Below are positions 2,715 to 61,060 of a DNA stretch of 64,000 nt, in pieces. The notes below the pieces were generated by a model. That model was not told the DNA's origin and made no database searches. It saw nothing but the letters and a program-made list of their open reading frames with translations. A program made the position numbers and the translations under genes. The first letter of the stretch is position 1; each line of letters starts with the position of its first letter. Source of the stretch: Hanleya hanleyi (Eukaryota; Mollusca; Polyplacophora; Lepidopleurida; Hanleyidae); NCBI GenBank assembly GCA_036873755.1, contig JAVTVY010025160.1, positions 48,677 to 112,676 of the forward strand. The letters run 5' to 3'.

Positions 2715-2760
2715 GAAGTGTATTCCCCAAAACACGCACAGTCGACGTTCAACCGTCAAC

Positions 2761-3312: not shown

Positions 3313-3458
3313 AACAAAAGGATGAAACTTTCTGAAACGGCGACTTCTGATTGGACAGCCGAGAATATCTAACGGGCAAGAAAGAATATGACTGATACAA
3401 AGGACGGCCTCTGATTGGACAAGAGTCTTCTTGAATTCTAAACCTACCCATCTCTAAC
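3313..3458 (+). repeat. Direct repeat DR1, promoter of gene 4
   Basis: A block of about 150 bp starts right after the gene 3 stop and recurs at about 3914-4075. Shared runs include 'ctttctgaaacggcgactt' and 'ctgattgga'. It holds two inverted CCAAT boxes (ATTGG at 3350 and 3414) and leads into the gene 4 TATA box, so this copy serves as a promoter. Confidence 0.75.
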
Positions 3459-3466
3459 TATAAATA
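3459..3466 (+). promoter_or_regulatory. TATA box of gene 4
   Basis: TATAAATA lies 41 bp after the second inverted CCAAT box. An mRNA start about 30 bp downstream excludes the ATG at 3485 and favours the ATG at 3521. Confidence 0.65.
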
Positions 3467-3520
3467 CGGAAACACGCATGTTAGATGTACATTCTCACAG
3501 CCTGTACCAGACCCGATCAA

Positions 3521-3877: not shown

Positions 3878-3913
3878 CATATATACAGACAGATGAATGA
3901 ATGAGTAAAAATC

Positions 3914-4075
3914 ATATTAGATCACACCGAACAAAGATGGAACTTTCTGAAACGGCGACTTCTGATTGGATAGCCGAGAATACATCTAACGGGCAAGAAC
4001 GAATATGACAGGACCAAATGGTGGCCTCTGATTGGATAAGAGACTTCATGAATTGTAAACACACCCAACGCGGCT
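3914..4075 (+). repeat. Direct repeat DR2 after gene 4
   Basis: Second copy of the DR1 block, with both inverted CCAAT boxes but without the TATA end. Its first bases ('agatcacaccgaacaaag') match the sequence directly after the finger gene stop in the element at 36315-43066. So this copy looks like the original 3' flank of gene 3, with DR1 plus gene 4 inserted before it. Confidence 0.7.
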
Positions 4076-4108
4076 CCCCCAGCGTGGGTATGTTATGATG
4101 GAGGGGAA

Positions 4109-4114
4109 AATAAA
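4109..4114 (+). terminator. Shared polyadenylation signal
   Basis: AATAAA follows the last gene, then 'ctatatgaaaaaaa' and a TTG microsatellite (about 4131-4178, two blocks split by 'ctctcatc'). The same signal and microsatellite lie behind the genes of the third element, so the + strand genes probably share one 3' end. Confidence 0.55.
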
Positions 4115-4189
4115 CTATATGAAAAAAACTTGTTGTTGTTGTTGTTCTCTCATCTTTGTTGTTGTTGTTCTCTCATCTATCTACATCAT

Positions 4190-4340
4190 GGCGTCAAGGC
4201 GTTATGTTAGGGCGTACCGACGAACGTTGACGGACGTCACTGCATTTCCAATGAATTAGTGTCTAGAAAAATCAGAGTTTTTGGGCTAATTCACCAGGGC
4301 GTTGAAGCGTTGAGCTTGGCGTTGGCGGGCGTTGCTACAA
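4190..4340 (+). repeat. Second GGCGTT module at the 3' end of the gene block
   Basis: This is a diverged copy of the module at 2526-2706, sharing 'gtctagaaaaat', 'aattcaccagggcgttgaa' and 'gcgttggcgggcgt', but with no TATA box or gene behind it. The two modules thus bracket genes 3 and 4. Confidence 0.65.
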
Positions 4341-4343
4341 GAG

Positions 4344-4977
4344 AACTCGGAGCTCCGGAGCTCTTGGAACTCGGAGCTCCGGAGCTCTTGGAACTCGAGC
4401 TCCGGAGCTCCAATTGGGATAGGGTTGATAGGTGGTTTCCCCTATTTTAGGGGTAAAGTCCGTGTTCCGCTTTTTATATTTTCGGACAAAATCCTAATTT
4501 TACATGCACCCACCCATGACTGGATGCCCCTTCATGAATGCTTCACTTTGATACCTCACTCGACTCCATAGGACCACTAGTGGCCCACCTAGACCCGAAA
4601 ACGTCTATTTCCATACCCTTGGTCACCGCGCATGCGCAGAATGTCGATATTTCAACCTCACACCCAGCCCATCGGATGCCCCTTTACGAATGCTTCATAT
4701 TGATACCTCACTCAACTCCATCGGACCATTAGTGGCTGCCCTAGACCCCAAAACGTCTATTTCCATACCCTTGGTCGACCGCGCATGCGCAGAATGACGA
4801 TATTTCAACCCCACACCCAACCCGGTAGATGCGCCTTCACGAATGCTTCACTTTGATACCTCACTCGACCCAATCGGACCATGCAGCGTATTTGAAGTCT
4901 AGGGACTACTTTTTCTCCGCGGAAGCTTTTTCCCGCGACCGCATCACCGCCAGACCGCATCACCGCGGAAGAATACA
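4344..4977. repeat. Right inverted repeat of element A
   Basis: From inside out: GAGCTCCGGAGCTC blocks, a shared segment with 'ctattttaggggtaaag', then two palindrome units (GCGCATGCGC at 4628 and 4791) and an outer end with 'gaccgcatcaccgc'. It is the reverse complement of parts of 5865-7130. It has only two palindromes against six on the left arm of copy 2, so the arms are unequal. Confidence 0.8.
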
Positions 4978-5864: not shown

Positions 5865-7252
5865 TGTATTCCTCCGCGGTGATGTGGTCATGTCTGGCGG
5901 TGATGCGGTCGCGGAAAAAAGCTTCCCCGGAGAAAAAGTAGTCCCCAGAATTCAAATACGCTGCATAGTCCGATTGGGTCGTATGAGGTATCAATGTGAA
6001 GCATTCGTGAAGGGGCATCTGATGGGCTGGGTGCGGGGTTGAAATAGCGTCATTCTGCGCATGCGCGGTGGACCAAGGGTATGGAAATAGACTTTTTGGG
6101 GTCTAGGGGAGCCACTAATGGTCCAATTGGGTCATATGAGGTATCAATGTGAAGCATTCGTAAAGGGGCATCTGATGAGCTGGGTGTGGGGTTGAAATAT
6201 CGGCATTCTGCGCATGCGCGGTGGACCAAGGGTATGGAAATAGACGTTTTCGGGTCTTTGTGGGCCACTAGTGGTCCTATGGAGTCGTATGAGGTATCAA
6301 TGTGAAGCCTATGTGAGGGGGCATCCGCCTGGACTAGTGTCTCGGCCGTTGTCAACATTCTGTGCATGCGCAGACAGGGAATTGTGGGAAAAGGGTATGG
6401 AGATAGAGGTTTTGGGATCTAGGTAAGCCCCTAGTGGTCCGATGGGGTCAAGTGAGGTATCAATGTGAAGCATATGTGAGGGGGCATCTGCCTGGACTAG
6501 TGTCTCGGTCGTTGTCAACATTCTGCGCATGCGCAGACAGGGAATTGTGGGAAAAGGGTATGAGAATAGACGTTTTGGAGTCTAGGTGGACCACTATTGG
6601 CGCTATGGAGTCGTATGAGGTATCCATGTGAAACATTCGTGATGGAGCATCGGATGGAGTGGGTAAGACGTGGAAGTGACGTCATTCTGCGCATGCGCAG
6701 TAGACCAAGGGTATGGAAATAGACGTTTTGGGATCTAGGAGAGCCCCTAGTGGGCCGATTGGGTCGAGTGAGGTATCCATGTGAAGCCTATGTGAGGGAG
6801 CATGCGCTTGGACTAGCGTCTCGGCCGTTGTCAACATTCTGCGCATGCGCAGACAGGGAATTGTGGGAAAAGGGTATGGAAATAGACGTTTTCGGGTCTA
6901 GGTGGGCCACTATTGGTCCGATTGGGTCGAGTGAGGTATCAAAGTGAAGCATTCGTGAAGGGGCATCCAGTCATGGGTGGGTGCATGTAACATTAGGATT
7001 TTGTCCAAAATATAAAAAGCGGAACACGGACTTTACCCCTAAAATAGGGGAAACCACCTATCAACCCTATCCCAATCTCGGAGCTCCAAGAGCTTCGGAG
7101 CTCCGAGTTCCAAGAGCTCCGGAAGGATTTTGTCCAAAATATAAAAAGCGGAACACGGACTTTACCCCTAAAATAGGGGAAACCACCTATCAACCCTATC
7201 CCAATCTCGGAGCTCCAAGAGCTTCGGAGCTCCGAGTTCCAAGAGCTCCGGA
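5865..7252. repeat. Left inverted repeat of element B, six palindrome units
   Basis: GCGCATGCGC or a one-base variant lies at 6057, 6210, 6362, 6525, 6689 and 6841 (spacings 153, 152, 163, 164, 152). After them 6995-7123 is duplicated in tandem as 7124-7252 (129 bp), a change not seen in copy 1. Confidence 0.8.
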
Positions 7253-7470
7253 ACTCCGAATCCGATTGGCTGGGTGCCAAGTTTTATATGGGCCGGGTGC
7301 CCATTGGCTCAGTGCCAAGTTTTTCGCTATAAAAAGGGGTTCATTTTGCAGTTCGGAGCTCCGGAGCTTCGAAGCTCAGAGCTCAAAGAGTTCTGGAGCT
7401 CCAAGGCTCCACCCCACGGGCGCTACCACCACCACCGGGCGTTGACATCCGCGAGCTCGGAGCTCTTGCA
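7253..7470 (+). promoter_or_regulatory. GAGCTC array with CCAAT/TATA promoter, copy B
   Basis: Matches 481-776 but is 78 bp shorter in the GAGCTC array. The distal TATAAAAAGG lies at 7328. Confidence 0.55.
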
Positions 7471-7477
7471 TATAAAC
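7471..7477 (+). promoter_or_regulatory. Proximal TATA box, ATPase copy B
   Basis: TATAAAC lies 63 bp before the ATG at 7534. Confidence 0.5.
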
Positions 7478-7533
7478 ACACATGCATCTGTGAAAGCTTC
7501 ATTATACGCCTGGTGTCCGTGGAGACGAGAGCC

Positions 7534-8821
7534 ATGGTTTACGCATGTCACTTGTGTTCGAAGTCATTTTCCACGCCATTTAATCTACGTAGACATTCGC
7601 TTTCCATACATAATAATCGTATACAGCGAAGCCATCTCAAGGAACGGAGTCCCGATAACGCGCAAATTCAAAGTACGCGCGAAGAACGATCAACACCTAG
7701 GTCATACACGACAGTATTAGAGCATCCTTATACGATGACGGTGAGCGGCCCTACGGGGTGTGGAAAGACGTCCTGGGTGATGAAGTTCTTAGAGGAAGGT
7801 GTGGCAACCCCAGCTCCGACACGCGTTGTATGGTGTTATAGCCAGTGGCAGCCCGCCTACGAAACTACGCGATTACAGAATGTGAGCTTCGTCCCAGGAA
7901 TTCCTCACGACATAGACGAACCGTATTACTTCGATTCCGAGCAGACCAACGTGGTAGTGCTCGATGATCTGATGAGTGCGGCCAAGGACAATTCGAAAAT
8001 CGCCGACCTATTCACCAAAGGGTCCCATCATCGCAATCTGTCCGTCATCTATTTGACTCAGAATCTCTTTCCTCAAGGGAGGCGTCCAGAGATATTGCCT
8101 TGAACTGTCAATACTTTGTGTTATTCTCCAACCCCATCGATAGAGCACAAATCCGTGTGTTTGGTAGTCGAATTTATCCTCAGAACATCGACCATTTCAT
8201 GCAGGTGTTTCAAGGGGCGACAAGTCGTCCCTACGGCTACCCGTTCGTAGATTTAAAGGCCCATACCCCCGAAGATTGTCGGCTGACGACCCACCTGTTA
8301 CCCGGCGAGGGATCACCGCAGCCCCTACGCCATCCACCGAGTCCACATCTGGCAGAGCAGCAGCAGCAACCCGCTCCCGTACAGCGTGTCCCCTTCATAC
8401 CATTTAGTCCCCGACTACCACCCAACCGTGAAGGATCAACCCAAACCCGTACAAGGGAATGAACATAATGTGAACTCGAGGCTATGGAAGGATTTGTTCA
8501 AAGAAAGTATGGACGCCGAGCTGGGCGAGATGTTGGAGGCCGCAGGAAACAAGTTTCATCGCAAAGGGTATTCGAAAGAGGAAGCCGCAATCTTAGCCCA
8601 TAATACTTTGGCACCCAGACTACGACTTACGTCAGCAGTATGCCCACCTCCTAACCCATATAAAATTGCTGGACAAGGACCCGGTCCATATGGAAATCGA
8701 AAGAACAGCGTCGATGTTGAAAACCTTGGGCATGAACTGGAAAGCGGCGTATGTCACAGCAATAGCACAAAAGAAACATTTGTTCGAACGCATCATTAAG
8801 ATCAAAAACGTCTCACTATAA
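7534..8821 (+). pseudogene. Finger-ATPase-helical gene, copy B, three frameshifts
   Basis: Copy of the gene at 840-2128. It keeps the ATG in CCATGG, the N-terminal finger, Walker A and Walker B. A 1-bp loss near 8081 (aagggagg instead of aagggaagg) ends the first frame at 8103 soon after the LTQN motif. Open fragments follow at 8100-8462 and 8386-8799. The two older lesions (near 8403 and 8624) are shared with copy A. Any product would be an N-terminal part of about 189 aa, probably not a working motor. If a raw-read check removes the 1-bp loss, this copy would equal copy A. Confidence 0.8.
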
Positions 8822-8824
8822 ATA
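8817..8824 (+). promoter_or_regulatory. TATA box of gene 2, copy B
   Basis: TATAAATA lies 39 bp before the ATG at 8856. Confidence 0.6.
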
Positions 8825-8855
8825 GACCACACGGCACCAGTCTCCTCATTTCACC

Positions 8856-9197
8856 ATGAGCACTGCAGAGTCCAACTTGTTTGAACTCAACAACGAGGAC
8901 ATGGTAGCCGATGCTATTATTGATACAGCGCAAGGTGGAATCAATAACCAACGCATGCGTTGTCACCTTATCACGCTCATAGATGACATCCAATGGGTGA
9001 CACGCGTATGTCTTCTGCTGCATAAGAAACAGATAGTATCAGAAGAGGATACCAACACAACTACCCGTGCCCAGAATCTGCTGACCCTGCATGAGGCATT
9101 TCAAACCTTTATGGAGACCCAGCTGGAGACGGGAAATTATCTTCTTCAACCTCCAACATCAACGTCCAGTGATGATGGACATGGCATAACGCGTTGA
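8856..9197 (+). CDS. Element protein 2, copy B, 113 aa
   Basis: Same as the 121-aa protein at 2163-2528, but eight codons are missing in frame after 'EDMVA' (24-bp loss). The loss removes part of the first predicted helix. One Pro-to-Ser change and otherwise near identity. The frame is retained although the neighbouring ATPase is broken. Family and function are unknown. Confidence 0.6.
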   Translation: MSTAESNLFELNNEDMVADAIIDTAQGGINNQRMRCHLITLIDDIQWVTRVCLLLHKKQIVSEEDTNTTTRAQNLLTLHEAFQTFMETQLETGNYLLQPPTSTSSDDGHGITR

Positions 9198-9375
9198 GAC
9201 AGGTATGGAGACGGGCGTTGAGACGGACGTTATGGCGTTGAGACGGGCGTTAAAGCGTTGAGATGGGCGCGGACGGGCGTCACTATATTTCGATGTATTG
9301 GTGTCTAGAAAAATGAGAGCATTTGAGCTAATTCACCAGGGCGTTGAAGCGTTAAGCTAAGCGTTGACGGGCGTC
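9195..9375 (+). promoter_or_regulatory. GGCGTT module upstream of gene 3, copy B
   Basis: Essentially identical to 2526-2706. Confidence 0.55.
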
Positions 9376-9383
9376 TATAAAAG
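9376..9383 (+). promoter_or_regulatory. TATA box of gene 3, copy B
   Basis: TATAAAAG lies 54 bp before the ATG at 9430. Confidence 0.65.
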
Positions 9384-9429
9384 GAAGTGTATTCCCCAAA
9401 ACACGCACAGTCGACGTTCAACCGTCAAC

Positions 9430-9981
9430 ATGGCTTATACTTGCTCTGAGTGCGAACACACGTTCACCAGACATTACGATATGATGCGACACCAGAAAAA
9501 TATACATGGGATTGAAGACTCCGTTGAATCGGATGCTGATACAGAGATTGATGAGAGTGTATCGACTGATACCGAAACCGAGATTGCTGACAGTCTATCT
9601 ACTGATACGGAGAGCTTACAGCCTACATCCCAGGAAAGTGAAGCAGAGCCTACTTTCTGGGATCGCATTTTGACAGCCGCTATCAATACTCACGCTGCAG
9701 CGATCGAGGACGCCGGACAGGATAACTTACAACAGGCGTATACCCAAATGCGCACCCGCATCAGGAAAACAGCCATGGCGATCTATGAACAGTATACCTT
9801 ACTACCGCTTGAAATGAAGGGCGACTCCACGCACAGGTCCATCATGAAGACCAAGCGTCACTTGGAAGAGAATATGGGGCTACCACCCACCGAGGCCCTG
9901 GAAAATGCGATCAGAATGCGCAAACAACTGTTTCAGGACATGCTGCCCGACGAATATCCAGGCCTGCACGAGGAGGACTAG
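9430..9981 (+). CDS. Element protein 3, copy B: C2H2 finger, acidic linker, helical domain, 183 aa
   Basis: Copy of 2761-3312 of the same length with about three amino-acid changes (Val to Leu after WDRI, Glu to Lys and Ser to Thr near the EMxGDS stretch). The finger (C5, C8, H21, H26), the acidic repeats and the helical domain are intact. The start is set by TATAAAAG at 9376. Likely a DNA-binding protein of the element, by analogy with the fold only. Confidence 0.75.
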   Translation: MAYTCSECEHTFTRHYDMMRHQKNIHGIEDSVESDADTEIDESVSTDTETEIADSLSTDTESLQPTSQESEAEPTFWDRILTAAINTHAAAIEDAGQDNLQQAYTQMRTRIRKTAMAIYEQYTLLPLEMKGDSTHRSIMKTKRHLEENMGLPPTEALENAIRMRKQLFQDMLPDEYPGLHEED

Positions 9982-10127
9982 AACAAAAGGATGAAACTTT
10001 CTGAAACGGCGACTTCTGATTGGACAGCCGAGAATATCTAACGGGCAAGAAAGAATATGACTGATACAAAGGACGGTCTCTGATTGGACAAGAGTCTTCT
10101 TGAATTTTAAACCTACCCATCTCTAAC
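9982..10127 (+). repeat. Direct repeat DR1, copy B
   Basis: As 3313-3458, with two inverted CCAAT boxes; it is the promoter of gene 4. Confidence 0.7.
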
Positions 10128-10135
10128 TATAAATA
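10128..10135 (+). promoter_or_regulatory. TATA box of gene 4, copy B
   Basis: TATAAATA lies 62 bp before the ATG at 10190. Confidence 0.65.
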
Positions 10136-10189
10136 CGGAAACACGCATGTTAGATGTACATTCTCACAGCCTGTACCAGACCCGATCAA

Positions 10190-10546
10190 ATGGAGAAGCC
10201 AGCCAATTCCAAGGCAGACGAGCAATCGTTGAAGATTGACGAAAAGGTGCCGGTTCCCGCTCGACTCCCCAAAAGAGTTACCAAAAGATACCCACCCATA
10301 ACTATGGAAATGATAGATGATTTCTTCAGTGTGGGTTACAGTTCAACCAGGGGAGAGCCCGGGGATCTTCGCTACCATCGCCAGCGATGCCTGACCTGCC
10401 TTGAAGGTGTACCCTTGGCCGGGTGTGATCTTTGCATGAGGAGAGAGAATCTTTCCAGTGGGCGAAGTGAGAGCTTGCCACCAAAGGCCGTTTTTTCCTT
10501 GTATGGAAAAATATGGCCGCGATTATCTCGAAAGAGAGACTTGTAA
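10190..10546 (+). CDS. Element protein 4, copy B, Cys-knuckle protein, 118 aa
   Basis: Identical in predicted sequence to the protein at 3521-3877, with the same start reasoning (the ATG at 10154 is too near the TATA box). It has the CX2CX8CX2C motif and basic ends. It is enclosed by direct repeats 9982-10127 and 10583-10744. Perfect identity beside a frameshifted ATPase reflects a recent duplication more than selection. Function unknown. Confidence 0.6.
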   Translation: MEKPANSKADEQSLKIDEKVPVPARLPKRVTKRYPPITMEMIDDFFSVGYSSTRGEPGDLRYHRQRCLTCLEGVPLAGCDLCMRRENLSSGRSESLPPKAVFSLYGKIWPRLSRKRDL

Positions 10547-10582
10547 CATATATACAGACAGATGAATGAATGAGTAAAAATC

Positions 10583-10744
10583 ATATTAGATCACACCGAA
10601 CAAAGATGGAACTTTCTGAAACGGCGACTTCTGATTGGATAGCCGAGAATACATCTAACGGGCAAGAACGAATATGACAGGACCAAATGGTGGCCTCTGA
10701 TTGGATAAGAGACTTCATGAATTGTAAACACACCCAACGCGGCT
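10583..10744 (+). repeat. Direct repeat DR2, copy B
   Basis: As 3914-4075. Confidence 0.7.
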
Positions 10745-10777
10745 CCCCCAGCGTGGGTATGTTATGATGGAGGGGAA

Positions 10778-10783
10778 AATAAA
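10778..10783 (+). terminator. Polyadenylation signal, copy B
   Basis: AATAAA, followed by the TTG microsatellite at about 10800-10847. Confidence 0.55.
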
Positions 10784-10858
10784 CTATATGAAAAAAACTT
10801 GTTGTTGTTGTTGTTCTCTCATCTTTGTTGTTGTTGTTCTCTCATCTATCTACATCAT

Positions 10859-11010
10859 GGCGTCAAGGCGTTATGTTAGGGCGTACCGACGAACGTTGAC
10901 GGACGTCACTGCATTTCCAATGAATTAGTGTCTAGAAAAATCAGAGTTTTTGGGCTAATTCACCAGGGCGTTGAAGCGTTGAGCTTGGCGTTGGCGGGCG
11001 TTGCTACAAG
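10859..11010 (+). repeat. Second GGCGTT module, copy B
   Basis: As 4190-4340. Confidence 0.65.
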
Positions 11011-11012
11011 AG

Positions 11013-11647
11013 AACTCGGAGCTCCGGAGCTCTTGGAACTCGGAGCTCCGGAGCTCTTGGAACTCGGAGCTCCGGAGCTCCAATTGGGATAGGGTTGATA
11101 GGTGGTTTCCCCTATTTTAGGGGTAAAGTCCGTGTTCCGCTTTTTATATTTTCGGACAAAATCCTAATTTTACATGCACCCACCCATGACTGGATGCCCC
11201 TTCATGAATGCTTCACTTTGATACCTCACTCGACTCCATAGGACCACTAGTGGCCCACCTAGACCCGAAAACGTCTATTTCCATACCCTTGGTCACCGCG
11301 CATGCGCAGAATGTCGATATTTCAACCTCACACCCAGCCCATCGGATGCCCCTTTACGAATGCTTCATATTGATACCTCACTCAACTCCATCGGACCATT
11401 AGTGGCTGCCCTAGACCCCAAAACGTCTATTTCCATACCCTTGGTCGACCGCGCATGCGCAGAATGACGATATTTCAACCCCACACCCAACCCGGTAGAT
11501 GCGCCTTCACGAATGCTTCACTTTGATACCTCACTCGACCCAATCGGACCATGCAGCGTATTTGAAGTGTGGGGACTACTTTTTCTCCGCGGAAGCTTTT
11601 TCCCGCGACCGCATCACCGCCAGACCGCATCACCGCGGAAGAATACA
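11013..11647. repeat. Right inverted repeat of element B
   Basis: Pairs with parts of 5865-7130. Two palindromes, at 11298 and 11461 (163 bp apart). The outer end is CCGCGGAAGAATACA at 11647. Confidence 0.8.
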
Positions 11648-12340: not shown

Positions 12341-12352
12341 CACAGTCAGAAA

Positions 12353-36308: not shown

Positions 36309-36314
36309 CCCGTC
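36309..36314. repeat. Target-site duplication, left copy (CCCGTC)
   Basis: CCCGTC stands directly before the element and again directly after it (43067-43072). Six bases is the length made by Polinton integrases. Confidence 0.85.
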
Positions 36315-38428
36315 AGTAGTAGGAAAAGAGTAAATTGCCTCCCATTTGTGGCGCGCTCACTTCCGGTTGAGTGGCACGCTGCCCTCAGCCAATCAGAAGC
36401 GAGTATTTTGACCCGGTGCATTATGGGACATATCCAAGATGGCGGCGTCTGCCTTCTGGTTCAAGATGGCGGCACGTCCGGTGTCGAAAACTGGCCATTT
36501 TGTCGGGATGTGGTCATCTAGTGTCGAAAACTGGACCCGGTATGGTCCCGCTAGACGTTTTGGGGTCTAGGTGGGCCACTAGTGGCCCGATGGAGTCGTA
36601 TGAGGTATCAATGTGAAGCATTCGTGAAGGAGCATCCGAGGGGATGAGTGTGACGTGGAACTTACGTCATTCTGCGCATGCGCAGTAGACAAAGGGTATG
36701 GAAATATACATTTTGGGATCTAGGGGAGCCCCTAATGGGCCGATAGAGTTGTATGAGATATCAATGTGAAGCCTATGTGAGGGGGTTGGGGCTGGGTCTG
36801 GGGTTGGAATATCGTCATTCTGCGCATGCGCGGTAGACCAAGGGTATGCAAATAGCCGTTTTGGGGTCTAGGGCAGCCACTAATGGACCGATGGGGTCGA
36901 GTGAGGTATCCATGTGAAGCCTATGTGAGGGGCATCCCACTGGGTGGATGTGGGGTCGGAATATCGTCATTCTGCGCATGCGCAATAGACAAAGGGTATG
37001 GAATAGACGTTTTGGGATCTAGGTGAGCCACTAATGAGCCGATGGAGTTGAGTGAGGTATCACTGTGAAGCCTAGGTTAGGGGGCATCCGACTGGGCTAG
37101 TGTCTCGGCCGTTGTCCACATTCTGCGCATGCGCAGACAGGGAATTCTGGGAAAAGGGTGTGGACATAGCCGTGTTAGGGTTTAGGTGAGCCCCTAATGA
37201 TCCTATGGTGTCGTATGAGGTCTTATTTTGAAGCTCTCGTGAGGGAGCATCCATGTAAAGCAGTCGTGAGAAAGTCTTCAACGGGCTGGGTGTGACGTGG
37301 AACTGACGTCATTCTGCGCATGCGCAGTAGAGAAAGTGTATGGAAATAGACGTGTTGGGGTCTAGGCGAGCCACTAATGGGCCGATGGAGTCGAGTGCGG
37401 TATCCATGTGAAGCCTATGTGAGGAAGCAACCGCCTGGAGTAGTGTCTCGGCCGTTATCCACATTCCGCGCATGCGCAGACAGGGAACTGTGGGAAACGG
37501 GTGTGGAAATAGACGTTTTTGCGGTCTAGGTGGGCCACGTAGGGTCCGATGGAGTCGAGTGAGGTATCAAAGTGAAGCATTCGTGAAGGGGCATCCAGTC
37601 ATGGGTGGGTGCATGTACAATTAGGGGTATGACGTCACTTCCGGTTTGGGTGAATGGGGCGTGACCTGGGAACATGATAGGACATGTACCGACCTGTCTG
37701 TCGGGGTTTTCCCACCAGAATTTCGCTGACGTCTGCGCCTGCATCCGGGTATGCAGGAGGGTCTGTGTGTGAATGGGGTGTGACCTGGGAACATGATAGG
37801 AATGCCTGTCTGTGGGGTTTTTTCCCGGCCCCAGCCCGGCCCGCCCCGGCCGCAGCGCGCGCGCGCGCCATCACCGGCAGTGCGCGGGTGAATGTCGGGT
37901 CAAAAGGTCAAAGGTCACATTTAGGTCAAAAGGTCCAAGGTCGCCCTTTCGGCAAGGTTCGGAGACAATGTTGCGGCATCGATATACAGAGCTTGAACCC
38001 CAAAAGGGGGTTGTAAATTAACCTGGGAAGGATGGGCAGTTCCATTTGGATCAATCAGCGGTCGAGAAAAAGAGCCAATGAGCGATCGATAAAAGAACCA
38101 ATGGACGGGTACTAGAATTTAGCTCACGTCTGCACCTACATCCGGGTACTGGGATGCTTTCGCCTACGTCCGCGCCTACATCCGGGTTCTTGTACACCCG
38201 GGTAATATTTTCTGGACATGGATGGGTTACCTTTGGCTCCATTGTAGGCCACTGATTGGCTAATACGGTGTTCAAAGCCAGTTTCATGCATTATGCTCAT
38301 ATAGAAAACACACGAGACAGGGTGTTTTGGTGAGATCTCATTTTGTTTTTTATTCGCGTGTGAGTGAGTGAGTGAGTGAGTGAGTGAGTGAGTGAGGCGT
38401 GCAAAACGCCCGTGAGGCGTCCCCAACG
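36315..38428. repeat. Left terminal inverted repeat with six phased palindromes
   Basis: It pairs with 40811-43066. GCGCATGCGC lies at 36674, 36822, 36974, 37125, 37316 and 37468 (spacings 148, 152, 151, 191, 152). The inner part has the 'aaggtcaaaggtcac' stretch, a CG run near 37855, and a GTGA microsatellite at about 38360-38396. Confidence 0.9.
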
Positions 38429-38580
38429 CCAAGCTTAACGCTTCAACGCCCTGGTGAAATAGCTCAGAAGTTCTGATTTTCTAGATATTCCATGGGATTC
38501 TTCGAAATGCAGTGATGCCCGTCAACGCTTGTAGTTATGCCTTAACGCTCTAACATAACGCCTTGACGCCATGATATAGA
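38429..38580 (-). repeat. GGCGTT module at the 3' side of the gene block
   Basis: On the - strand this corresponds to 4190-4340: 'aacgccctggtgaa', 'ttttctaga', then AACGCC-type words. Confidence 0.6.
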
Positions 38581-38651
38581 CCGGAGAGAGAACAACAACA
38601 ACAAGGATGACACATGAGAGAACAACAACAACAAGAAGTTTTTTCATATAG

Positions 38652-38657
38652 TTTATT
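38652..38657 (-). terminator. Polyadenylation signal (- strand)
   Basis: AATAAA on the - strand, followed by the same A-run and TTG microsatellite text as at 4109-4178. Confidence 0.55.
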
Positions 38658-38689
38658 TTCTCCAATGTTGGGGGAGCCGCGTTGGGTAT

Positions 38690-38827
38690 GTTTACAACTC
38701 AAGAAAACTCTTGTCCAATCAGAGGCCGCCATTTGCATCTGTTATATTCCTTCTTGTCCGTTAGATGTATTTTCGGTTGCTCTTGTCTGTCGCCATTTCA
38801 GAAAGTTCCATCTTTGCTCGGTGTGAC
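38690..38827 (-). repeat. Single copy of the DR block behind the finger gene
   Basis: Only one copy of the 150-bp block exists here, and gene 4 is absent. Its gene-proximal end ('tcacaccgagcaaagatgg') matches DR2 of elements A and B rather than DR1. Confidence 0.75.
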
Positions 38828-39403
38828 CTAAGCGTCGTCGTCGGGCAGGCCTGGATATTCTTCGGGCAGCATGTCCTGAAACAGTTGTTTGCGCATTCTG
38901 ATCGCATTTTCCAGGGCCTCGGTGGGTGGTAGCCCCATAGCCTCTTCCAAGTGACGCTTGGTCTTCATGATGGACCTGTGCGTTGGGTCGCCTTTCATTT
39001 CAAGCGGTAGTAAGGTATACTGTTCATAGATCGCCATGGCTGTTTTCCTGATGCGAGGGCGCATTTGGGGGTATGCCTGTTGTAAATTATCCTCTCCGGC
39101 GTCCTCGATCGCTGCAGCGTAAGTATTGATAGCTGCTGTCACAATACGATCCCAGAAGGTAGGTTCTGCCTCACTTTCCACGGATGTAGGCTGACTATCT
39201 GAGGTCAAGCTCTCCGTATCACTAGATGGACTCTCAGCAATCTCTGTTTCGGTATCAGTCGATACACTCTCAGCAGTCTCTGTATCAGCATTCGCCTCAA
39301 CGGACTCCTCGGAGTCTTCAATCCCATGTATATTTTTCTGATGTCGCATCATATCGTAATGTCTGGTGAACGTGCGTTCGCACTCAGAGCAAGTATAAGC
39401 CAT
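38828..39403 (-). CDS. Element protein 3: C2H2 finger, acidic linker, helical domain, 191 aa
   Basis: Start at the ATG at 39403, 48 bp after a - strand TATAAAA (39451-39457); a TTG further upstream is before the TATA and cannot be the start. The plan is as in 2761-3312: finger C5, C8, H21, H26; an acidic Ser/Thr-rich linker slightly longer here; then the helical domain with FWDRI, RIRK, HRSIMKT and KQLF. It differs from elements A and B by scattered substitutions and small in-frame indels in the linker while staying open. That argues for past selection on the protein. Likely nucleic-acid binding; role unproven. Confidence 0.78.
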   Translation of the reverse strand: MAYTCSECERTFTRHYDMMRHQKNIHGIEDSEESVEANADTETAESVSTDTETEIAESPSSDTESLTSDSQPTSVESEAEPTFWDRIVTAAINTYAAAIEDAGEDNLQQAYPQMRPRIRKTAMAIYEQYTLLPLEMKGDPTHRSIMKTKRHLEEAMGLPPTEALENAIRMRKQLFQDMLPEEYPGLPDDDA

Positions 39404-39450
39404 GTTGACGGTTGAACGTCGACTGTGCGTGTTTTTGGAAATACGCTTGC

Positions 39451-39457
39451 TTTTATA
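39451..39457 (-). promoter_or_regulatory. TATA box of the finger-acidic gene (- strand)
   Basis: TATAAAA on the - strand, in 'gtctataaaagcaag', directly after the GGCGTT module. Confidence 0.65.
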
Positions 39458-39459
39458 GA

Positions 39460-39631
39460 CAGTAACGTCCATCAACGCTTAGCTTAACGCTTCAACGCCC
39501 TGGTGAATTAGCTCAGAAGCTCTGATTTCCATGGAAATGACTCCAATTCACCGAAATACAGTGACGCCCGTCAACGCCAGTCGTTACGCCTTAACGCCCG
39601 TCTCAACGCCTTAACACACTTTCTTAACGCG
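39460..39631 (-). promoter_or_regulatory. GGCGTT-repeat module between the two genes
   Basis: On the - strand GGCGTT/GCGTTAA words recur about every 10-20 bp with 'agctaattcaccaggg' embedded. It equals 2526-2706. In elements A and B gene 2 lies between the ATPase and this module; here the ATPase stop abuts it. Confidence 0.6.
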
Positions 39632-40738
39632 TTAACGTCGTTTAATGATGCGTTCGAACAAATGTTTCTTTAGTGCTATTGCTCTGACATACGCCGCTTT
39701 CCAGTTCATGCCCGAGGTTTTCAACATCGACGCTGTTCTTTCAATTTCCATATGGACTGGGTCCTTATCCAACAATTTCATATGGGTCACGAGGTCGACA
39801 TACCGCTGACGTAAAGCCCGTCGTAGTCTGGGTGCCAATCTGTTATGGGCTAAAATTGCGGCTTCCTCTTTCGAATACCCTTTGCGTTGAAACTTGTTTC
39901 CTGTGGCCTCCAACATCTCGCCCAGCTCGGCGTCCATACTTTCTTTGAACAAATCCTTCCATAACCTCGAGTTGACATTATGTTCTTCAACCTCGTGTTG
40001 GTCCTTCACGGTTGGGTGATATTCCGGGACTGATGGTATGAAGGGGCCCCGCTGTATGGGGGTGGGTTGCTGCTGCTGCCCTACCAGATGTGGACTCGGT
40101 GGATGGTGTCGGGATATATGACGTTGCGGTGATGCCTCGCCGGGTAACAGGTGGGTCGTCATCCGACGATCTTCCGAGGTATGGGCTTTTAAATCTACGA
40201 ACAGGTAGCCGTACGGACGGCTTGTCGCTCCTTGAAACGCCTGCATGAAATGGTCGATGTTCTGAGGATAAATTCCACTAGCAAACACACGGATTTGTGC
40301 TCTGTCAATGGGATTGGAGAACAACACAAAGTATTGGCAGTTCAAGGCAATATCTCTGGACGCCTTCCCTTGAGGAAAGAGATTCTGAGTCAAATAGATG
40401 ACGGACATATTGCGATGATGGGACCCTTTGGTGAACAGGTCGGCGATTTTCGAATTGTCCTTGGCCGCACTCATCAGATCATCGAGCACTACCACGTTGG
40501 TCTGCTCGGAATCGAAGTAATAGGGTTCGTCTATGTCGTGAGGAATTCCTGGGACAAAGCTCACATTCTGTAATCGCGTAGTTTCGTAGGCGGGCTGCCA
40601 CTGGCTATAACACCAAACAACACGTGTCGGAGCTGGGGTTGCCACGCCTTCCTCTAGAAACTTCATCACCCAGGACGTCTTTCCACACCCTGTAGGGCCG
40701 CTCACCGTCTTTTGACAGAACGGACATGTACTCGACAT
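39632..40738 (-). CDS. A32/FtsK-type packaging ATPase with C-terminal helical domain, 368 aa
   Basis: Uninterrupted ATPase of the HerA/FtsK, A32-like class that Polintons and related viruses use to move DNA into capsids. Walker A GPTGCGKT is at 14-21, Walker B VVVLDDL at 82-88 (acidic pair D86, D87), and LTQN at 116-119 with the conserved Gln after beta-strand 4. About 205-245 is a Pro/Gln-rich linker. About 255-368 is a helical domain with RLRR, a DPVHMEI stretch and KKHLF, which resembles the C-terminal domain of the finger-acidic protein of this element. The N-terminus is odd: only CPFC of a finger remains, and the rest of the finger found in elements A and B has been replaced. The ATG at 40738 follows a TATA-like box by about 55 bp. 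Length and motifs suggest a working ATPase core; activity is not shown. Confidence 0.82.
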   Translation of the reverse strand: MSSTCPFCQKTVSGPTGCGKTSWVMKFLEEGVATPAPTRVVWCYSQWQPAYETTRLQNVSFVPGIPHDIDEPYYFDSEQTNVVVLDDLMSAAKDNSKIADLFTKGSHHRNMSVIYLTQNLFPQGKASRDIALNCQYFVLFSNPIDRAQIRVFASGIYPQNIDHFMQAFQGATSRPYGYLFVDLKAHTSEDRRMTTHLLPGEASPQRHISRHHPPSPHLVGQQQQPTPIQRGPFIPSVPEYHPTVKDQHEVEEHNVNSRLWKDLFKESMDAELGEMLEATGNKFQRKGYSKEEAAILAHNRLAPRLRRALRQRYVDLVTHMKLLDKDPVHMEIERTASMLKTSGMNWKAAYVRAIALKKHLFERIIKRR

Positions 40739-40790
40739 GGTACCCGGTCAAAGGATGGATACAGACTGAGGCTAATGGTGTACAAACGAC

Positions 40791-40798
40791 CTTATATG
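40791..40798 (-). promoter_or_regulatory. TATA-like box of the ATPase gene (- strand)
   Basis: CATATAAG on the - strand, just inside the right inverted repeat. This promoter differs from the CCAAT/TATA promoter used in elements A and B. Confidence 0.5.
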
Positions 40799-40810
40799 AC
40801 CACTCACTCA

Positions 40811-43066
40811 CGTTTGGGACGCCTCACGGGCGTTTTGCACGCCTCACTCACTCACTCACTCACTCACTCACTCACTCACACGCGAATAAAAAACAAAATG
40901 AGATCTCACCAAAAAACCCTGTCTTGTGTGTTTTCTATATGAGCATAATGCATGAAACTGGCTTTGAACACCGTATTAGCCAATCAGTGGCCTAGAATGG
41001 AGCCAAAGGTAACCCATCCATGTCCAGAAAACATTACCCGGGTGTACAAGAACCCGGATGTAGGCGCGGACGTAGGCGAAAGCATCCCAGTACCAGGATG
41101 TAGGCGCAGACGTGAGCAAAATTCTTGTACCCGTCCATTGGTTCTTTTATCGATCGCTCATTGGCTCTTTTTCTCGACCGCTGATTGATCCAAATGGAAC
41201 TGCCCATCCTTCCCAGGTTAATTACAATCCCCTTTTGGGGTTCAAGCTCTGTATATCGATGCCGCAACATTGTCTCCGAACCTTGCCGAAAGGGAGACCT
41301 TGGAGCTTTTGACCTGGATGTGACCTTTGACCTTTTGACCCGACATTCACCCGCGCACTGCCGGTGATGACGCGCGCGCGCGCTGCGGCCGGGGCGGGCC
41401 GGGCCGGGGCCGGGAAAAAACCCCACAGACAGGTCAGTACATGCATTCCTATCATGTTCCCAGGTCACACCCCATTCACACACAGACCTTCCTGCATACC
41501 CGGATGCAGGCGCAGACGTCCGCGAAATTCTGGTGGGAAAACCCCCACAGACAGGTCGGTACATGTCCTATCATGTTCCCAGGTCACACCCCATTCACCC
41601 AAACCGGAAGTGACGTCATATCCCTAATTTTACATGCACCCACCCATGACTGGATGCCCCTTCACGAATGCTTCACTTTGATACCTCACTCGACTCCATC
41701 GGACCCTTCGTGGCCCACCTAGACCGCAAAAACGTCTATTTCCACACCCGTTTCCCAAAATTCCCTGTCTGCGCATGCGCAGAATGTGGATAACGGCCGA
41801 GACACTACTCCAGGCGGTTGCTTCCTCACATAGGCTTCACATGGATACCGCACTCGACTCCATCGGCCCATTAGTGGCTCGCCTAGACCCCAACACGTCT
41901 ATTTCCATACACTTTCTCTACTGCGCATGCGCAGAATGACGTCAGTTCCACGTCACACCCAGCCCGTTGGAAACTTCCTCACGACTGTTTTACATGGATA
42001 CCTCACTCGATCCCATCGGCCCACTAGTGGCCCACCTAAACCCCAACACGTCTATTTCTATACTACGGCCAGACTGCGCATGCGCAGACTATGGACAACG
42101 AACGACACACTAGCACAGGCGGATGCTCCCTCACGAGAGCTTCAAAATAAGACCTCATACGACACCATAGGATCATTAGGGGCTCACCTAAACCCTAACA
42201 CGGCTATGTCCACACCCTTTTCCCAGAATTCCCTGTCTGCGCATGCGCAGAATGTGGACAACGGCCGAGACAATAGTCCAATCGGATGCCCCCTAACCTA
42301 GGCTTCACAGTGATACCTCACTCAACTCCATCGGCTCATTAATGGCTCACCTAGATCCCAAAACGTCTATTTCCATACCCTTTGTCTATTGCGCATGCGC
42401 AGAATGACGATATTCCGACCCCACATCCACCCAGTGGGATGCCCCCTCACATAGGCTTCACATGGATACCTCACTCGACCCCATCGGTCCATTAGTGGCT
42501 GCCCTAGACCCCAAAACGGCTATTTGCATACCCTTGGTCTACCGCGCATGCGCAGAATGACGATATTTCAACCCCACACCCAGCCCACCGGATGCCCCCT
42601 CACATAGGCTTCACATTGATATCTCATACAACTCTATCGGCCCATTAGGGGCTCCCCTAGATCCCAAAATGTATATTTCCATACCCTTTGTCTACTGCGC
42701 ATGCGCAGAATGACGTCAGTTCCACGTCACACTCATCCCCTCGGATGCTCCTTCACGAATGCTTCACATTGATACCTCATACGACTCCATCGGGCCACTA
42801 GTGGCCCACCTAGACCCCAAAACGTCTAGCGGGACCCATACCGGGTCCAGTTTTCGACACTAGATGACCACATCCCGACAAAATGGCCAGCTTTCGACAC
42901 CGGACGTGCCGCCATCTTGAACCAGAAGGCAGACGCCGCCATCTTGGATATGTCCCATAATGCACCGGGTCAAAATACTCGCTTCTGATTGGTTGAGGTC
43001 AGCGCGCCACTCAACCGGAAGTGAGCGCGCCACAAATGGGAGGCAATTTACCCTTTTCCTACTACT
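40811..43066. repeat. Right terminal inverted repeat with seven phased palindromes
   Basis: GCGCATGCGC lies at 41771, 41923, 42076, 42239, 42391, 42544 and 42697 (spacings 152, 153, 163, 152, 153, 153). It is about 142 bp longer than the left arm because it holds one more unit (around 41960-42120). It otherwise mirrors 36315-38428, including the GTGA-type microsatellite. Confidence 0.9.
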
Positions 43067-43072
43067 CCCGTC
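43067..43072. repeat. Target-site duplication, right copy (CCCGTC)
   Basis: Matches 36309-36314 exactly. Confidence 0.85.
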
Positions 43073-57275: not shown

Positions 57276-57948
57276 TACATAATCGAAAAGGTTGAAAATA
57301 CCACGATATACCTCAAGTAATAGCGGGCGAGTCCCGGACATCTACTTCAGCACTATGTCCAGCTATGTTTATTCGTCATGTAAGGAAAACACAATAGGCG
57401 ACTACATTATGGAACATTTGTTGAAGCTGGAAAAGCTACCTGACGAGCTGTATCACACACGGTGTCCCCGGTTTGAAGATTCTTACATGACGAACTGTCC
57501 CCAATGGGGAAACCACTCATGGATATTTCTCTTGCGGTGTACAGTAAGGAGAGTGGCACTATCTCTGTGTGAGATATCAGTTTGAAGTGCTTGTGAGGTA
57601 GAGCCCGACTGGGGATAATACGCGCATGCGCACTTGGGAGTAGTAGAGAAAGGACAAAGACTTAACATCCTATCTTAATGCTTTAACGCCCTATAGTAAC
57701 GCCTTAACGCCCGTCTCAACGCCTTAACGGCCTGATGCAGACAGATCAGAGAAAGAAAGATGAATACGTTCTCAAGTTTTTATATAGTTCATTCTCCAAT
57801 GTTACATTATACCCAAGCTAGGGGAGCTGCGTTGGGTATGCTTACAATTCAAGTATGCTCTTGTTCGTGTAACAGACGCATCAACGGCTGCTCTTGTCAA
57901 ATCAGAAGCCGCCATTCCGGTCATGTTCGCTCAGATCCGTTTGTCCTA

Positions 57949-58265
57949 ATCGTTGTAGGTCAGGCCCGGATACTGTAACGGCAACATATCCTGAAACAGC
58001 TGTTTGCACGGTTTGATCGCAAATTGCAGGACCTCTGTGGTTGTGCTTTCAGATGACGCTTGGTCTTGCTGTCACAATACGATCCCAAAAGGTTTTTCCT
58101 CACTCAGGTTTCCCTGGTATGTAGCCTGATTATCTGAGGTCGGGTTATCTGTTAGTAGATATACTCTCAGCAGTCTCTGCTTCGGTATCAGTCGGAGGAC
58201 TCTCAGAATCAGAAGGTATAATCTCACCATCTGAATTGGCTTCTTCCGCCTCGATGTCTTCATAC
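57949..58265 (-). pseudogene. Finger-acidic-helical gene remnant, - strand
   Basis: Matches the C-terminal end of the gene at 38828-39403 ('atatcctgaaacagctgttt', 'tgacgcttggtctt', 'cacaatacgatcccaaaagg') and its acidic linker, with a deletion in the helical part and several frameshifts. The zinc finger is missing: homology stops just after the finger's last His. Its polyadenylation-side flank (57740-57945) matches 38580-38827. Confidence 0.7.
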
Positions 58266-58754
58266 CTATGTGTATAAAGACACCGAGGCGCAAGAAGCCA
58301 ATGCAGATGCTTGGAATATACCAGCTGATACCGATGCAGAGACTGCTGAGAGTCTATTTACTAATACAGACAGCTCAACCTCAGATATTCAGGCTGCATT
58401 CCAAGGAAGCTCGGGTGAGGAAGAACCCACCTTTAGCATGGTATTGTGACAGCAGCTATCAATACCCACGCAGTGGTGATCGAGGACGCCGGACAGGGTA
58501 ACTTGCAACAGACTTCATCCGAATGCATCCCTGCATCAGAAAGACAGCCATGGCGATCTGTGAAAGGTATAGTCTGCTGCCGTTTGAAATGAAAGATGAC
58601 CCCACGCACAGGTACACCATGATGGCCAAGCGTCACCTGGAAGAGGATATGGGACTACCATCCACAGATGTCCTGCAAAATGGGATGAAATACGCAAACG
58701 GCCGTTCCAAGACATGATGCCGTTACAGTATCCGGGCCTGCCCGACGACGATTA
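58266..58754 (+). pseudogene. Finger-acidic-helical gene remnant, + strand
   Basis: A second remnant points away from the first and also starts just after the finger. The linker (ADTDAETAES type) and most of the helical domain ('agccatggcgatctgtgaa', 'aagcgtcacctggaagagga') are readable but split by frameshifts and stops. It ends at TAG near 58752-58754. With 57949-58265 it forms an inverted duplication centred near 58265. Confidence 0.7.
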
Positions 58755-58849
58755 GGATAAATGGATCAGAGCGAACATGGCCGCAAATTGACACAACACC
58801 AAAAAGCGTCTTCTGATTGGACAAGAGCAGCCGAGAAAACGACCATCAG

Positions 58850-58999
58850 CTGAACGTCGCCAGGCAAGGCAACTTACGGCTGGAAATCCACTTTGCACGA
58901 GCCCTCCGGTGCAGCATCAATGTGATTTGCTACGCCGAGTTTGTCAACATCATTTCAGTGGACAAGGCGTGCAACGTCCTGTGTGACTTGGCCACCTAA
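58850..58999 (+). pseudogene. C-terminal fragment of a Polinton capsid-type protein
   Basis: About 50 codons ending TAA at 58997-58999. The readable signature is GNLRLEIHFARAL, then NVICYAEF, then VDKACNVLCD. From memory this is the conserved C-terminal pattern of the 'F54H12.2-like' virion protein family of Polintons (capsid). The N-terminal part is absent: sequence upstream of about 58850 belongs to the finger-gene flank. It stands one base before the protease start, a tight coupling expected in a Polinton. The family call is from recall, not from a search. Confidence 0.55.
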
Positions 59000-59000
59000 C

Positions 59001-59153
59001 ATGGATACAGGCCAGATTACCACCGTGCTGGAGAATGACCCAGGGACACACACTATCTTTCAAGGGGTGTTCTCCCGAGATGTTTTAGGTCGTGTGTATC
59101 TTGCCGCATACGTCCTCAACACGGACCCGACGGATCGTCCCGGTCAACATTAG
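59001..59153 (+). pseudogene. Adenain-like cysteine protease, N-terminal fragment
   Basis: The ATG at 59001 opens 50 codons. FQGVFSRD, AAYVLNTD and PGQH match the start of adenovirus-type proteases as found in Polintons, where the His of PGQH (normally followed by Trp) belongs to the catalytic triad. Here a TAG stop follows that His directly, and no downstream Asp/Gln/Cys parts were found in 59154-59410. Such proteases mature capsid proteins. This piece is dead, but it fixes the identity of the wreck. Confidence 0.6.
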
Positions 59154-59839
59154 CCAACGAAATCTCACAGACCGAGTACATGTTTTGAGGTAGGTTAAGA
59201 GCGGGCATTCCAGCACAAACGTTTGACGAGGAAGGACCATGGCAAGTTACAAGACCAACAGGTGGAATAAAAAAACCATAAAGTTCGACGTGCGGTGAAG
59301 ACCAGGAAGACGACGAGAATGTCCATGGCGGGTGTCCGACCGCCCAGGGGTGATATTGATTGAAAGCCGAGGTGGGGCAACACAGATGATGTTTAACCAA
59401 CATTCTAATTAAAATTAAATCCTATCTGCTCACCTATTTGGATGTGTCGCTTGCAGCATCTAACCGGCTTGCAGTAACGCGAGTGTCAACCAATCCCGAG
59501 AGCTCTTCATAGTGCTTTGACGGGAACATAATGGTGGGTGCTTTCTGGTTGGCTCAGCCGAATCACACGCCAGGTTGGCACCATAATGCAAGGTAGAATT
59601 ATGGACTGGTCCTTGGCATAAACATTGGGTTAAAACGGAGACGATGCCCCTACCCCCCCCCCCCCTCCGCGACTGCAACTAAAGTAGTTATACAGTGGAT
59701 TCTCGGACGTAGCCGTTGTATCTCAGCTGTTCATGTGGAGACTATGCGGCCCCTAGCACTCGCAATGCGCAACCCCATTATCTCACCCCACATTACTCTA
59801 GAGAAGCCTGGATCCAGGCGACTCATTTGGTGCAATTCC
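59154..59839. other. Interior of the wreck, nothing further recognised
   Basis: A 95-codon - strand frame (59116-59403) overlaps the protease fragment and has no domain that I recognise. A C-rich run lies at 59653-59665. Confidence 0.4.
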
Positions 59840-60075
59840 CATAATAACAAGCGTCTGGTCCGTCATTCGTCAATTAAAAAATATCCGTCCATAATCCAAA
59901 GACCTTTTCATATTCCATAAAATAGCATCAGCAGCAAATTCAAAAAGTCAATCATAGTATACATAAACATAGGCTAATTTCCTGCAAGAGAGAAGAGAGA
60001 AACAGTTTTCAATGATACCGGCAAGACATCTTGATGTTCCAAAAATATCAATACTTTATCCATATGATATTCGAT
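59840..60075. repeat. Dispersed repeat, relative of 16740-17180
   Basis: Shares 'atccgtccataatcc'-type arm text (near 59882) and 'caagagagaag...acagttttcaat' downstream. Confidence 0.5.
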
Positions 60076-60344
60076 GTGAAGTCCTCATCTAGATAATGAT
60101 GTATCTCAGTCACGTATTGATTTTGACTGTTCATATGAGCAACATGAGGATCTGGAAGTACATGGTTTCATACGGTCCCTAGCCCCGGCATGTCACTATG
60201 CCCTCTGGTTCTCGGCATAGGGCATGTGGGTGATATTGTCGGGGGCCATGTTTGATGACGTGCATTTCGGGAGATGTCAATTAACATTGGAATGACTGAA
60301 GGACATATGAAGCCGTATTCAGGGGCAGATAAGTCTTGCTGAGC
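60076..60344. other. Spacer before the right array, nothing recognised
   Basis: No gene or repeat supported. Confidence 0.4.
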
Positions 60345-61060
60345 CTATACACCAGGCTCCGAAATGGTACGTTGACCCCTCTTGATCCTTTGAAAGGGAA
60401 TCTTTGCGCGTATTGGCCTTGGAAATATGCCCATGATCTTTGTGACGTCATTCCCGGTTCCGTTCACGTGACCGGAAGTGACCTTTGACCTATGCGCATT
60501 TCCATTAGGAGCTAGGATAGACCACCTCCAAACGTAATGCTTTTTTTCCACTATTCTGTCTGTGCGCAGAATGGACGGTATTTTCACTACACATCCATCC
60601 AGTAGAATGCTCCCCCACGAGTGGTTCAACATCACACCCCATACGACCCATCGGCCCCAAAATATCCATTCCAATGCATTTTTCTCACTGCGCATGCGCA
60701 GAATGACGTCATTAATACGGCACGCCTGTCCAGTCGGATGTTCCCCCACGAATGCTACACTATGATACCTCCTACGACCCAATCGGGTCAATAGTGGTCC
60801 ACCTCGACCCCAAGACATCCATTTCAATACTCTTTTTCTACTGAGCATGCGCAGAATTACGACAGTTTACGCCACACTCGTCCAGTCGGATACTCCTAAA
60901 ACAACTGCTTCACTATGACACTTCCCACGGCCCATTCGGACAAATAGTGGTCCACCTCGACCCCCAAACATCCCCCACAGGCCTGCCTATGTACTACGCA
61001 TGCGCAGTCAATACTTTTCAGCGATAGTCACCCCCTGGCCATGAGACCCCTCCCATCGTG
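60345..61060. repeat. Right inverted-repeat array of the wreck, diverged
   Basis: Palindrome units at 60690 (intact), 60843 (GAGCATGCGC) and 60996 (ACGCATGCGC), both spacings exactly 153 bp, plus a damaged one near 60560. Unit text ('gatacctcctacgacccaat', 'agtggtccacctcgacccc') is clearly related to 41680-42830 yet diverged. The 153-bp phase has survived the divergence. Confidence 0.8.

What the first reader, a model, noticed from the sequence alone, without database searches (positions are those of the whole stretch)
36309..43072. Miniature Polinton with 2.1-2.3 kb inverted repeats that keeps a packaging-type ATPase
AG...CT ends and an exact 6-bp duplication (CCCGTC) are seen directly and match the Polinton rule. 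Yet the element is 6.75 kb, two thirds of it inverted repeat, with no integrase, polymerase, capsid or protease. A parasite that loses nearly everything but retains an open packaging motor and a DNA-binding-type protein could be a satellite that competes for capsids.
Basis: partly seen in the sequence, partly recalled or inferred. Interest (0 to 1): 0.88.

Follow-up and report, generated by a model that had tools for sequence, protein, structure and literature searches.

The report
High-copy mini-Polintons keeping a packaging-type motor
A short mobile element built like a stripped-down virus-like transposon proves to be one of many closely similar copies in a large genome, and its main gene resembles the motors that viruses use to load DNA into their shells, so it may be a parasite of its bigger relatives.

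Summary
In detail: element 36315-43066 (6,752 bp), ends (AGT)2//(ACT)2, exact 6-bp duplication CCCGTC, inverted arms of 2,114/2,256 bp (2,069 of 2,111 aligned columns identical). It is not a one-off. Of 20 fetched genome stretches carrying its terminus, 14 hold both ends; these 14 and the window copy all have exact, mutually different 6-bp duplications and measure 4.9-7.9 kb. One sampled element of a second subfamily has other terminal sequence, 8.6 kb, an exact duplication and the same two genes. No polymerase, integrase, capsid or protease frame was found in them. The genes are a C2H2 zinc finger + FtsK/HerA ATPase + helical C-terminal domain protein (406-411 aa in three copies; the window copy lacks part of the finger) and a motorless paralogue, zinc finger + the same C-terminal domain. 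At least 111 ATPase copies exist, 82 without a stop in the aligned part. The motor model is closest to viral packaging ATPases. Best reading: a satellite of Polintons, moved in trans by full Polintons (present in the genome), that keeps its own packaging-type proteins. Packaging into a helper's capsid is inferred, not shown; many copies have a broken motor, and no full Polinton with its terminal sequence was found.

The parts
36309..36314 (.). left target-site duplication CCCGTC
   Evidence: exact copy at 43067-43072
36315..38428 (+). left inverted arm, begins AGTAGTAGG
36558..37596 (+). subterminal ~150-bp repeats (7 copies of their 80-nt core), most with TGCGCATGCGCA
   Evidence: (D8)
38437..38561 (+). 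cluster of AACGC motifs downstream of the zinc-finger gene
38828..39403 (-). zinc finger + C-terminal domain protein (ZFC), 191 aa from first ATG; TATAAAA 54 bp upstream of the ATG
39474..39630 (+). cluster of AACGC motifs upstream of ZFC
39632..40738 (-). FtsK/HerA-type ATPase + C-terminal domain, 368 aa; lacks 38 residues (second half of the zinc finger and linker) present in other copies
40811..43066 (-). right inverted arm, ends CCTACTACT
43067..43072 (.). right target-site duplication CCCGTC
1..4977 (+). related element B1 (cut by window start): frameshifted ZF-ATPase 819-2106, 121-aa frame 2163-2528, ZFC 2761-3312, 130-aa frame 3485-3877
5865..11647 (+). related element B2, part of a 6,670-bp tandem duplication with B1 (longest matched block 99.1%)
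57690..61000 (.). decayed relative C (approximate limits): ZFC fragments and ~153-bp repeats

Best explanation
A high-copy, non-autonomous satellite family of Polintons. SHOWN: the element and the relatives read here end in (AGT)2//(ACT)2, are flanked by exact 6-bp duplications, and show no polymerase or integrase frame, while Polintons with long open pPolB frames live in the same genome. They carry an FtsK/HerA motor with (in complete copies) an N-terminal zinc finger and a helical C-terminal domain, plus a motorless paralogue (zinc finger + the same C-terminal domain). INFERRED: Polinton integrase and protein-primed polymerase supplied in trans replicate and insert them; the zinc fingers recognise element DNA; the C-terminal domains bring motor and motorless paralogue together; the motor loads satellite DNA into a helper's capsid, as phage satellites redirect packaging with their own packaging proteins (recalled comparison). 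INFERRED origin of the anatomy: strand-switching ('snap-back') during protein-primed replication, as recalled for defective genomes of linear DNA viruses, would make arms of variable length and the copies that carry genes twice in inverted orientation.
Against: Only 6 of 15 complete elements have an ATPase frame covering at least 300 residues of the window protein, 3 of 15 the full 406-411 aa, and L022 holds two ATPase fragments only: the ATPase is not needed in cis by every copy, or copies decay quickly. The putative ends of two full Polintons share little beyond AGTAGT with the mini-element (terminus score against L041 equalled by 1 of 200 shuffles, against L043 by 13 of 200), and the one ATPase found there is 204 aa, 42% identical, without finger or C-terminal domain: no matching helper was found. 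Foldseek alone lists F1 ATP-synthase chains right behind B204. dN/dS is lower for the ATPase domain than elsewhere: C-terminal parts 0.48 and 0.28, ZFC 0.42; pooled among copies 0.42 for ATPase (36 pairs) and 0.52 for ZFC (55 pairs), only moderately low; selection before the loss of other genes cannot be fully separated. No particle, expression or packaging evidence exists. Pattern-based scans of IMG/VR, GTDB contigs and a search of phage records found no relative.
Confidence: 0.55

Rival explanations
1. Ordinary non-autonomous Polinton derivatives: only the ends matter for trans-mobilisation, and the ATPase and zinc-finger genes are retained because they help replication, transcription or integration (or are passengers), with no packaging role.
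For: Ends and TSDs suffice for a non-autonomous element; many copies have a broken ATPase but good ends; zinc-finger-gene sequence is present in 15 of 15 complete copies, more regularly than an intact ATPase.
Against: 82 of the 111 best-scoring ATPase copies lack stops in the aligned part (the scoring favours good copies); dN/dS 0.20 in the ATPase domain against B1. In a published survey nine of the Polintons without capsid genes also lacked ATPase and protease (PMC4028283, passages read), the opposite of this pattern.
Confidence: 0.27
2. Element-encoded interference: the ZF-C-domain protein (and the motor) act as competitors or repressors of full Polintons, protecting the host or the satellite's own copies; packaging is not used.
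For: A motorless paralogue sharing finger and C-terminal domain has the anatomy of a dominant-negative.
Against: The one full-Polinton ATPase read here has neither of these domains, so the paralogue would not obviously poison it; no data on expression.
Confidence: 0.1
3. A one-off internal deletion of one full Polinton.
For: Size and missing genes alone.
Against: 14 further complete copies of the same kind at other sites, a second subfamily with other ends, and related or decayed copies in the same window.
Confidence: 0.01

Closest known systems
Polintons/Mavericks (Polintoviricetes, adintoviruses)
   Same: (AGT)2//(ACT)2 ends, 6-bp TSD, inverted repeats, FtsK/HerA packaging-type ATPase
   Different: 4.9-8.6 kb instead of 12.7-24.6 kb (intact vertebrate elements, PMC8097293); no pPolB, integrase, capsid or protease frame found; ATPase fused to zinc finger and C-terminal domain; arms in most copies longer than the 46-1,447 bp reported there (approximate)
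Capsid-less Polintons (PMC4028283, passages)
   Same: loss of capsid genes
   Different: there nine elements without MCP also lacked ATPase and protease; here the ATPase is what stays and polymerase and integrase are gone
Virophages and transpovirons
   Same: small dependents of larger DNA viruses (analogy)
   Different: virophages encode capsid genes (PMC11071308, passages); none was found here
Phage satellites such as PICIs and P4 (recalled, no call)
   Same: would work alike if the motor redirects packaging
   Different: different motors, hosts and integration; no kinship tested
Defective genomes of linear protein-primed viruses, e.g. adenovirus (recalled, no call)
   Same: long inverted terminal duplications expected from strand switching
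   Different: here the forms are inherited as chromosomal insertions with TSDs and often open genes

Membership tests
Polinton/Maverick | 6-bp target-site duplication | tested here: met
   15 of 15 complete elements, all exact and different; C42718 element too
Polinton/Maverick | (AGT)2//(ACT)2 end motif | tested here: met
   motif from PMC8097293 section 7
Polinton/Maverick | FtsK/HerA packaging ATPase | tested here: met
Polinton/Maverick | protein-primed DNA polymerase B | tested here: not met
   two core frames only, no polymerase match, 2,382-bp core leaves no room; in 16 elements no unmatched frame over 214 aa
Polinton/Maverick | RVE integrase | tested here: not met
   Pfam on 10 of 24 unmatched frames
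Polinton/Maverick | major and minor capsid proteins, protease | tested here: not met
   no frame left for them in the core; no unmatched frame over 214 aa in 16 elements; capsid folds were not searched separately
Polinton/Maverick | 12.7-24.6 kb length (intact vertebrate elements) | tested here: not met
   4,945-7,909 bp in 15 elements, 8,647 bp in C42718
Non-autonomous Polinton satellite | multi-copy with shared ends, no own integrase | tested here: met
Non-autonomous Polinton satellite | terminal sequence shared with an autonomous element | tested here: inconclusive
   AGTAGT shared; beyond it weak similarity to the putative ends of two Polintons; a third (L047) shows a candidate end only; the rest were not read
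Satellite virus using helper capsids | satellite DNA found in helper particles | not testable with these tools
   needs wet-lab or virion sequencing data

The most novel reading that the evidence does not exclude
These are chromosomal satellite viruses of Polintons that carry their own packaging specificity: a zinc-finger-guided FtsK/HerA motor plus a motorless adaptor that load satellite DNA into a helper Polinton's capsid. Proteins with the same three-part build in other, mostly unnamed assemblies (23 of the 120 listed of 1,309 homologues have both extra domains by my motif and profile test) may mark such satellites in many hosts.
Probability: 0.3. Interest if true: 0.92.

Novelty: new variant of a known kind. 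Interest (0 to 1): 0.78.

Why it matters
Whether Polintons make infectious particles has stayed open since capsid genes were found in them; the abstract of PMC8097293 (seen in listings) says that particles have not been observed. A satellite family that has dropped replication, integration and capsid genes but still keeps a packaging-type motor with signs of purifying selection is indirect evidence that packaging is, or recently was, worth having. It turns the question into a test: are mini-element molecules found inside DNase-resistant particles? It also suggests a defective-genome route by which virus-like transposons spawn abundant short families.

Tried and rejected
Rejected: one-off deletion; splice-donor reading of the odd ATPase start (other copies show that 38 residues are missing in frame). 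Led nowhere: IMG/VR, GTDB-contig and phage searches for the ATPase or the repeat motif; homologues of ZFC (none among 121 candidates) and of the 121-aa protein (none among 4); ZFC structure model (mean pLDDT 51.6, not used); rve integrase search of the genome, which is not Polinton-specific; ends of the B element (AGTAGTCCC lies inside a longer inverted repeat and I saw no TSD). Literature: ten searches; one search found no paper with any of six phrases for non-autonomous or mini Polintons or Mavericks, but only openly licensed papers are held, and Repbase could not be checked. Kapitonov and Jurka 2006 and Starrett 2021 are not held. Papers: PMC8097293 passages and section 7; PMC4028283, PMC3671162, PMC11071308, PMC6431247, PMC11071296 passages; all others listing only.

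Dropped rows: of the 40 terminal matches, 8 were not fetched and 2 are the window's own; of 20 fetched stretches 6 lack one end (L030, L032, L033, L036, L039, L040; L032, L033 and L039 run to a contig end). In one search, L022 has a second, inner terminus-like match whose pairing has 4 TSD mismatches, and in L031 the right-end match is split by an indel, giving a second pairing with 6 mismatches; I took the outer pair in both.

Full report
OBSERVATION. Between two copies of CCCGTC lie 6,752 bp that start AGTAGTAGG and end CCTACTACT. The arms (2,114 and 2,256 bp) align with 2,069 of 2,111 columns identical and 148 gap columns. The outer arm holds about 240 bp outside the repeats and then ~150-bp tandem repeats. 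The 2,382-bp core has two minus-strand frames.

END MOTIF. PMC8097293 (section 7 read) reports 5'-(AGT)2//(ACT)2-3' as the commonest end motif of vertebrate Mavericks; its intact elements have 6-bp duplications (passage). The window element has both.

RELATIVES IN THE WINDOW. B1 (1-4977, cut by the window) and B2 (5865-11647) are parts of a 6,670-bp tandem duplication whose longest matched block is 99.1% identical. They have the same gene order with two extra small frames, and a frameshifted ATPase. C (about 57.7-61.0 kb) is a decayed relative. Window ATPase domain against B1: dN/dS 0.20 (23 synonymous in 151 sites, 17 nonsynonymous in 515; Fisher 9e-7); two C-terminal parts 0.48 and 0.28; ZFC 0.42 (p 0.02). 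Polarising 20 amino-acid differences with 120 homologues gave 5 changed in the window copy, 4 in B1, 11 unclear, so the window copy's motor is not wholly unchanged.

THE GENOME. When genome search answered, the host proved to be a 2.48-Gb unnamed assembly in 52,793 contigs. The 292-bp terminus has 40 scored matches of 2,666 candidates, at 97-100%. I fetched 20 stretches (30 of the 40 matches; 8 left unread, 2 are the window's own). Fourteen hold both ends; with the window copy, 15 of 15 have exact 6-bp duplications, all different, and lengths 4,945-7,909 bp. ATPase matches of more than 50 residues occur in 14 of 15 and ZFC matches in 15 of 15. An ATPase frame covering at least 300 window residues exists in 6 of 15, the complete 406-411-aa form in 3 of 15; a ZFC frame covering at least 175 residues in 9 of 15 (three incomplete stretches also have long ATPase frames). 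Compared with the complete forms the window copy lacks 38 residues in frame, the second half of the zinc finger and the linker. Among 9 ATPase frames pooled dN/dS is 0.42 (36 pairs), among the 3 complete ones 0.49; among 11 ZFC frames 0.52 (55 pairs).

OTHER GENES. In these 15 elements and the fetched part of the C42718 element there are 62 ATG frames of at least 120 aa; 38 match the known proteins, and the other 24 are at most 214 aa. Pfam on 10 of those 24 gave nothing but two sub-cut-off matches to an unrelated oxygenase family. No frame of Polinton polymerase, integrase, capsid or protease kind was seen.

COPY NUMBER. The ATPase protein gave 36,147 first-look candidates, of which 111 were scored, 92-100% identical over at least 354 of 368 residues; 82 of 111 have no stop in the aligned part (counted by me from the listing; frameshifts not counted). 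The candidates are not a copy number, and scoring favours good copies. A group with 421-aa open frames at about 92% identity was sampled once: C42718:125845-134491, 8,647 bp, arms of at least 3.0 kb at 99.4% identity, ends AGTAGTATATAAAGC...CTTTATATACTACT, TSD ATCGTA on both sides, with an ATPase frame (408 aa from ATG) and ZFC sequence in both orientations. Its terminus is not similar to the window element's beyond AGTAGT (90 of 200 shuffles score as high). So similar genes ride between different ends.

HELPERS. pPolB (PF03175) gave 164 matches, 84 of 1,723 candidates scored, many in open frames of 1,100-1,480 aa. One Polinton read in pieces (C27644) has pPolB, an rve-chromodomain integrase (412 aa) and a 204-aa ATPase. 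Another (C2308) has a weak adenovirus-protease match (E 0.0045, below cut-off), and no ATPase was found in the 20 kb read around its pPolB. The 204-aa ATPase is 42% identical to the window's and has neither finger nor C-terminal domain. The two putative left ends read AGTAGTAAAGGCG (no TSD was tested); beyond AGTAGT they are only weakly similar to the window element (scores equalled by 1 and 13 of 200 shuffles, ten comparisons made). The specific helper is therefore not identified.

ARMS. Arm length differs between copies with the same ends, from about 0.8 kb (L023) to 3.7 kb (L024), by an approximate measure, and L024, L028, L031 and L038 carry ATPase and/or ZFC sequence in both orientations. 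This is what strand switching during protein-primed replication would leave, as recalled for defective genomes of linear DNA viruses; it is an inference.

VERDICT. A high-copy satellite family of Polintons is the best reading. End structure, duplications, gene content, multiplicity and motor fold are shown. Mobilisation in trans follows from missing enzymes plus present Polintons. Packaging into a helper capsid is the most interesting but least supported step. Against it stands that many complete copies have a broken motor. PMC4028283 (passages read) reports that nine of the Polintons without capsid genes also lacked ATPase and protease; here the ATPase is what remains, which is why the pattern is surprising. 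I found no paper naming such elements (and nine other searches), within an openly licensed library.

Noticed in passing
36558-37596 and 41652-42828: Most ~153-bp subterminal repeats carry the palindrome TGCGCATGCGCA, which overlaps the best-conserved 12-mers of the unit across copies; it resembles the NRF1 site (recalled). 13 of the window's 27 such sites are in this element.
   Followed up: partly
36359-36475 and 42908-43022: The outermost 240 bp of both arms hold ETS-like CCGGAAGT and AAGATGGCGGC motifs (names recalled), promoter-like content at the very ends.
   Followed up: no
1-12505: 6,670-bp tandem duplication (longest block 99.1%) containing two copies of a related element, segmental duplication or assembly artefact.
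   Followed up: partly
3485-3877 and 2163-2528: Two small frames (130 and 121 aa) with TATA boxes in related elements; the 121-aa gene recurs in L021, L023, L027, L034, L036 and L037 but had no database homologue.
   Followed up: partly
43479-46254: Large 29-bp satellite array just right of the element; further arrays at 47363-48475 (39 bp) and 54546-54787 (24 bp).
   Followed up: no
L041:1771: AGTAGTAGGGAAAGGGCAAA, like the window element's terminus (score above 200 of 200 shuffles), lies 4 kb left of a full Polinton; no partner end or shared interior was found in L041.
   Followed up: partly
L042:7281-7895: A full Polinton in the same genome has a 204-aa ATPase without extra domains, so two distinct packaging-ATPase lineages coexist.
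   Followed up: yes
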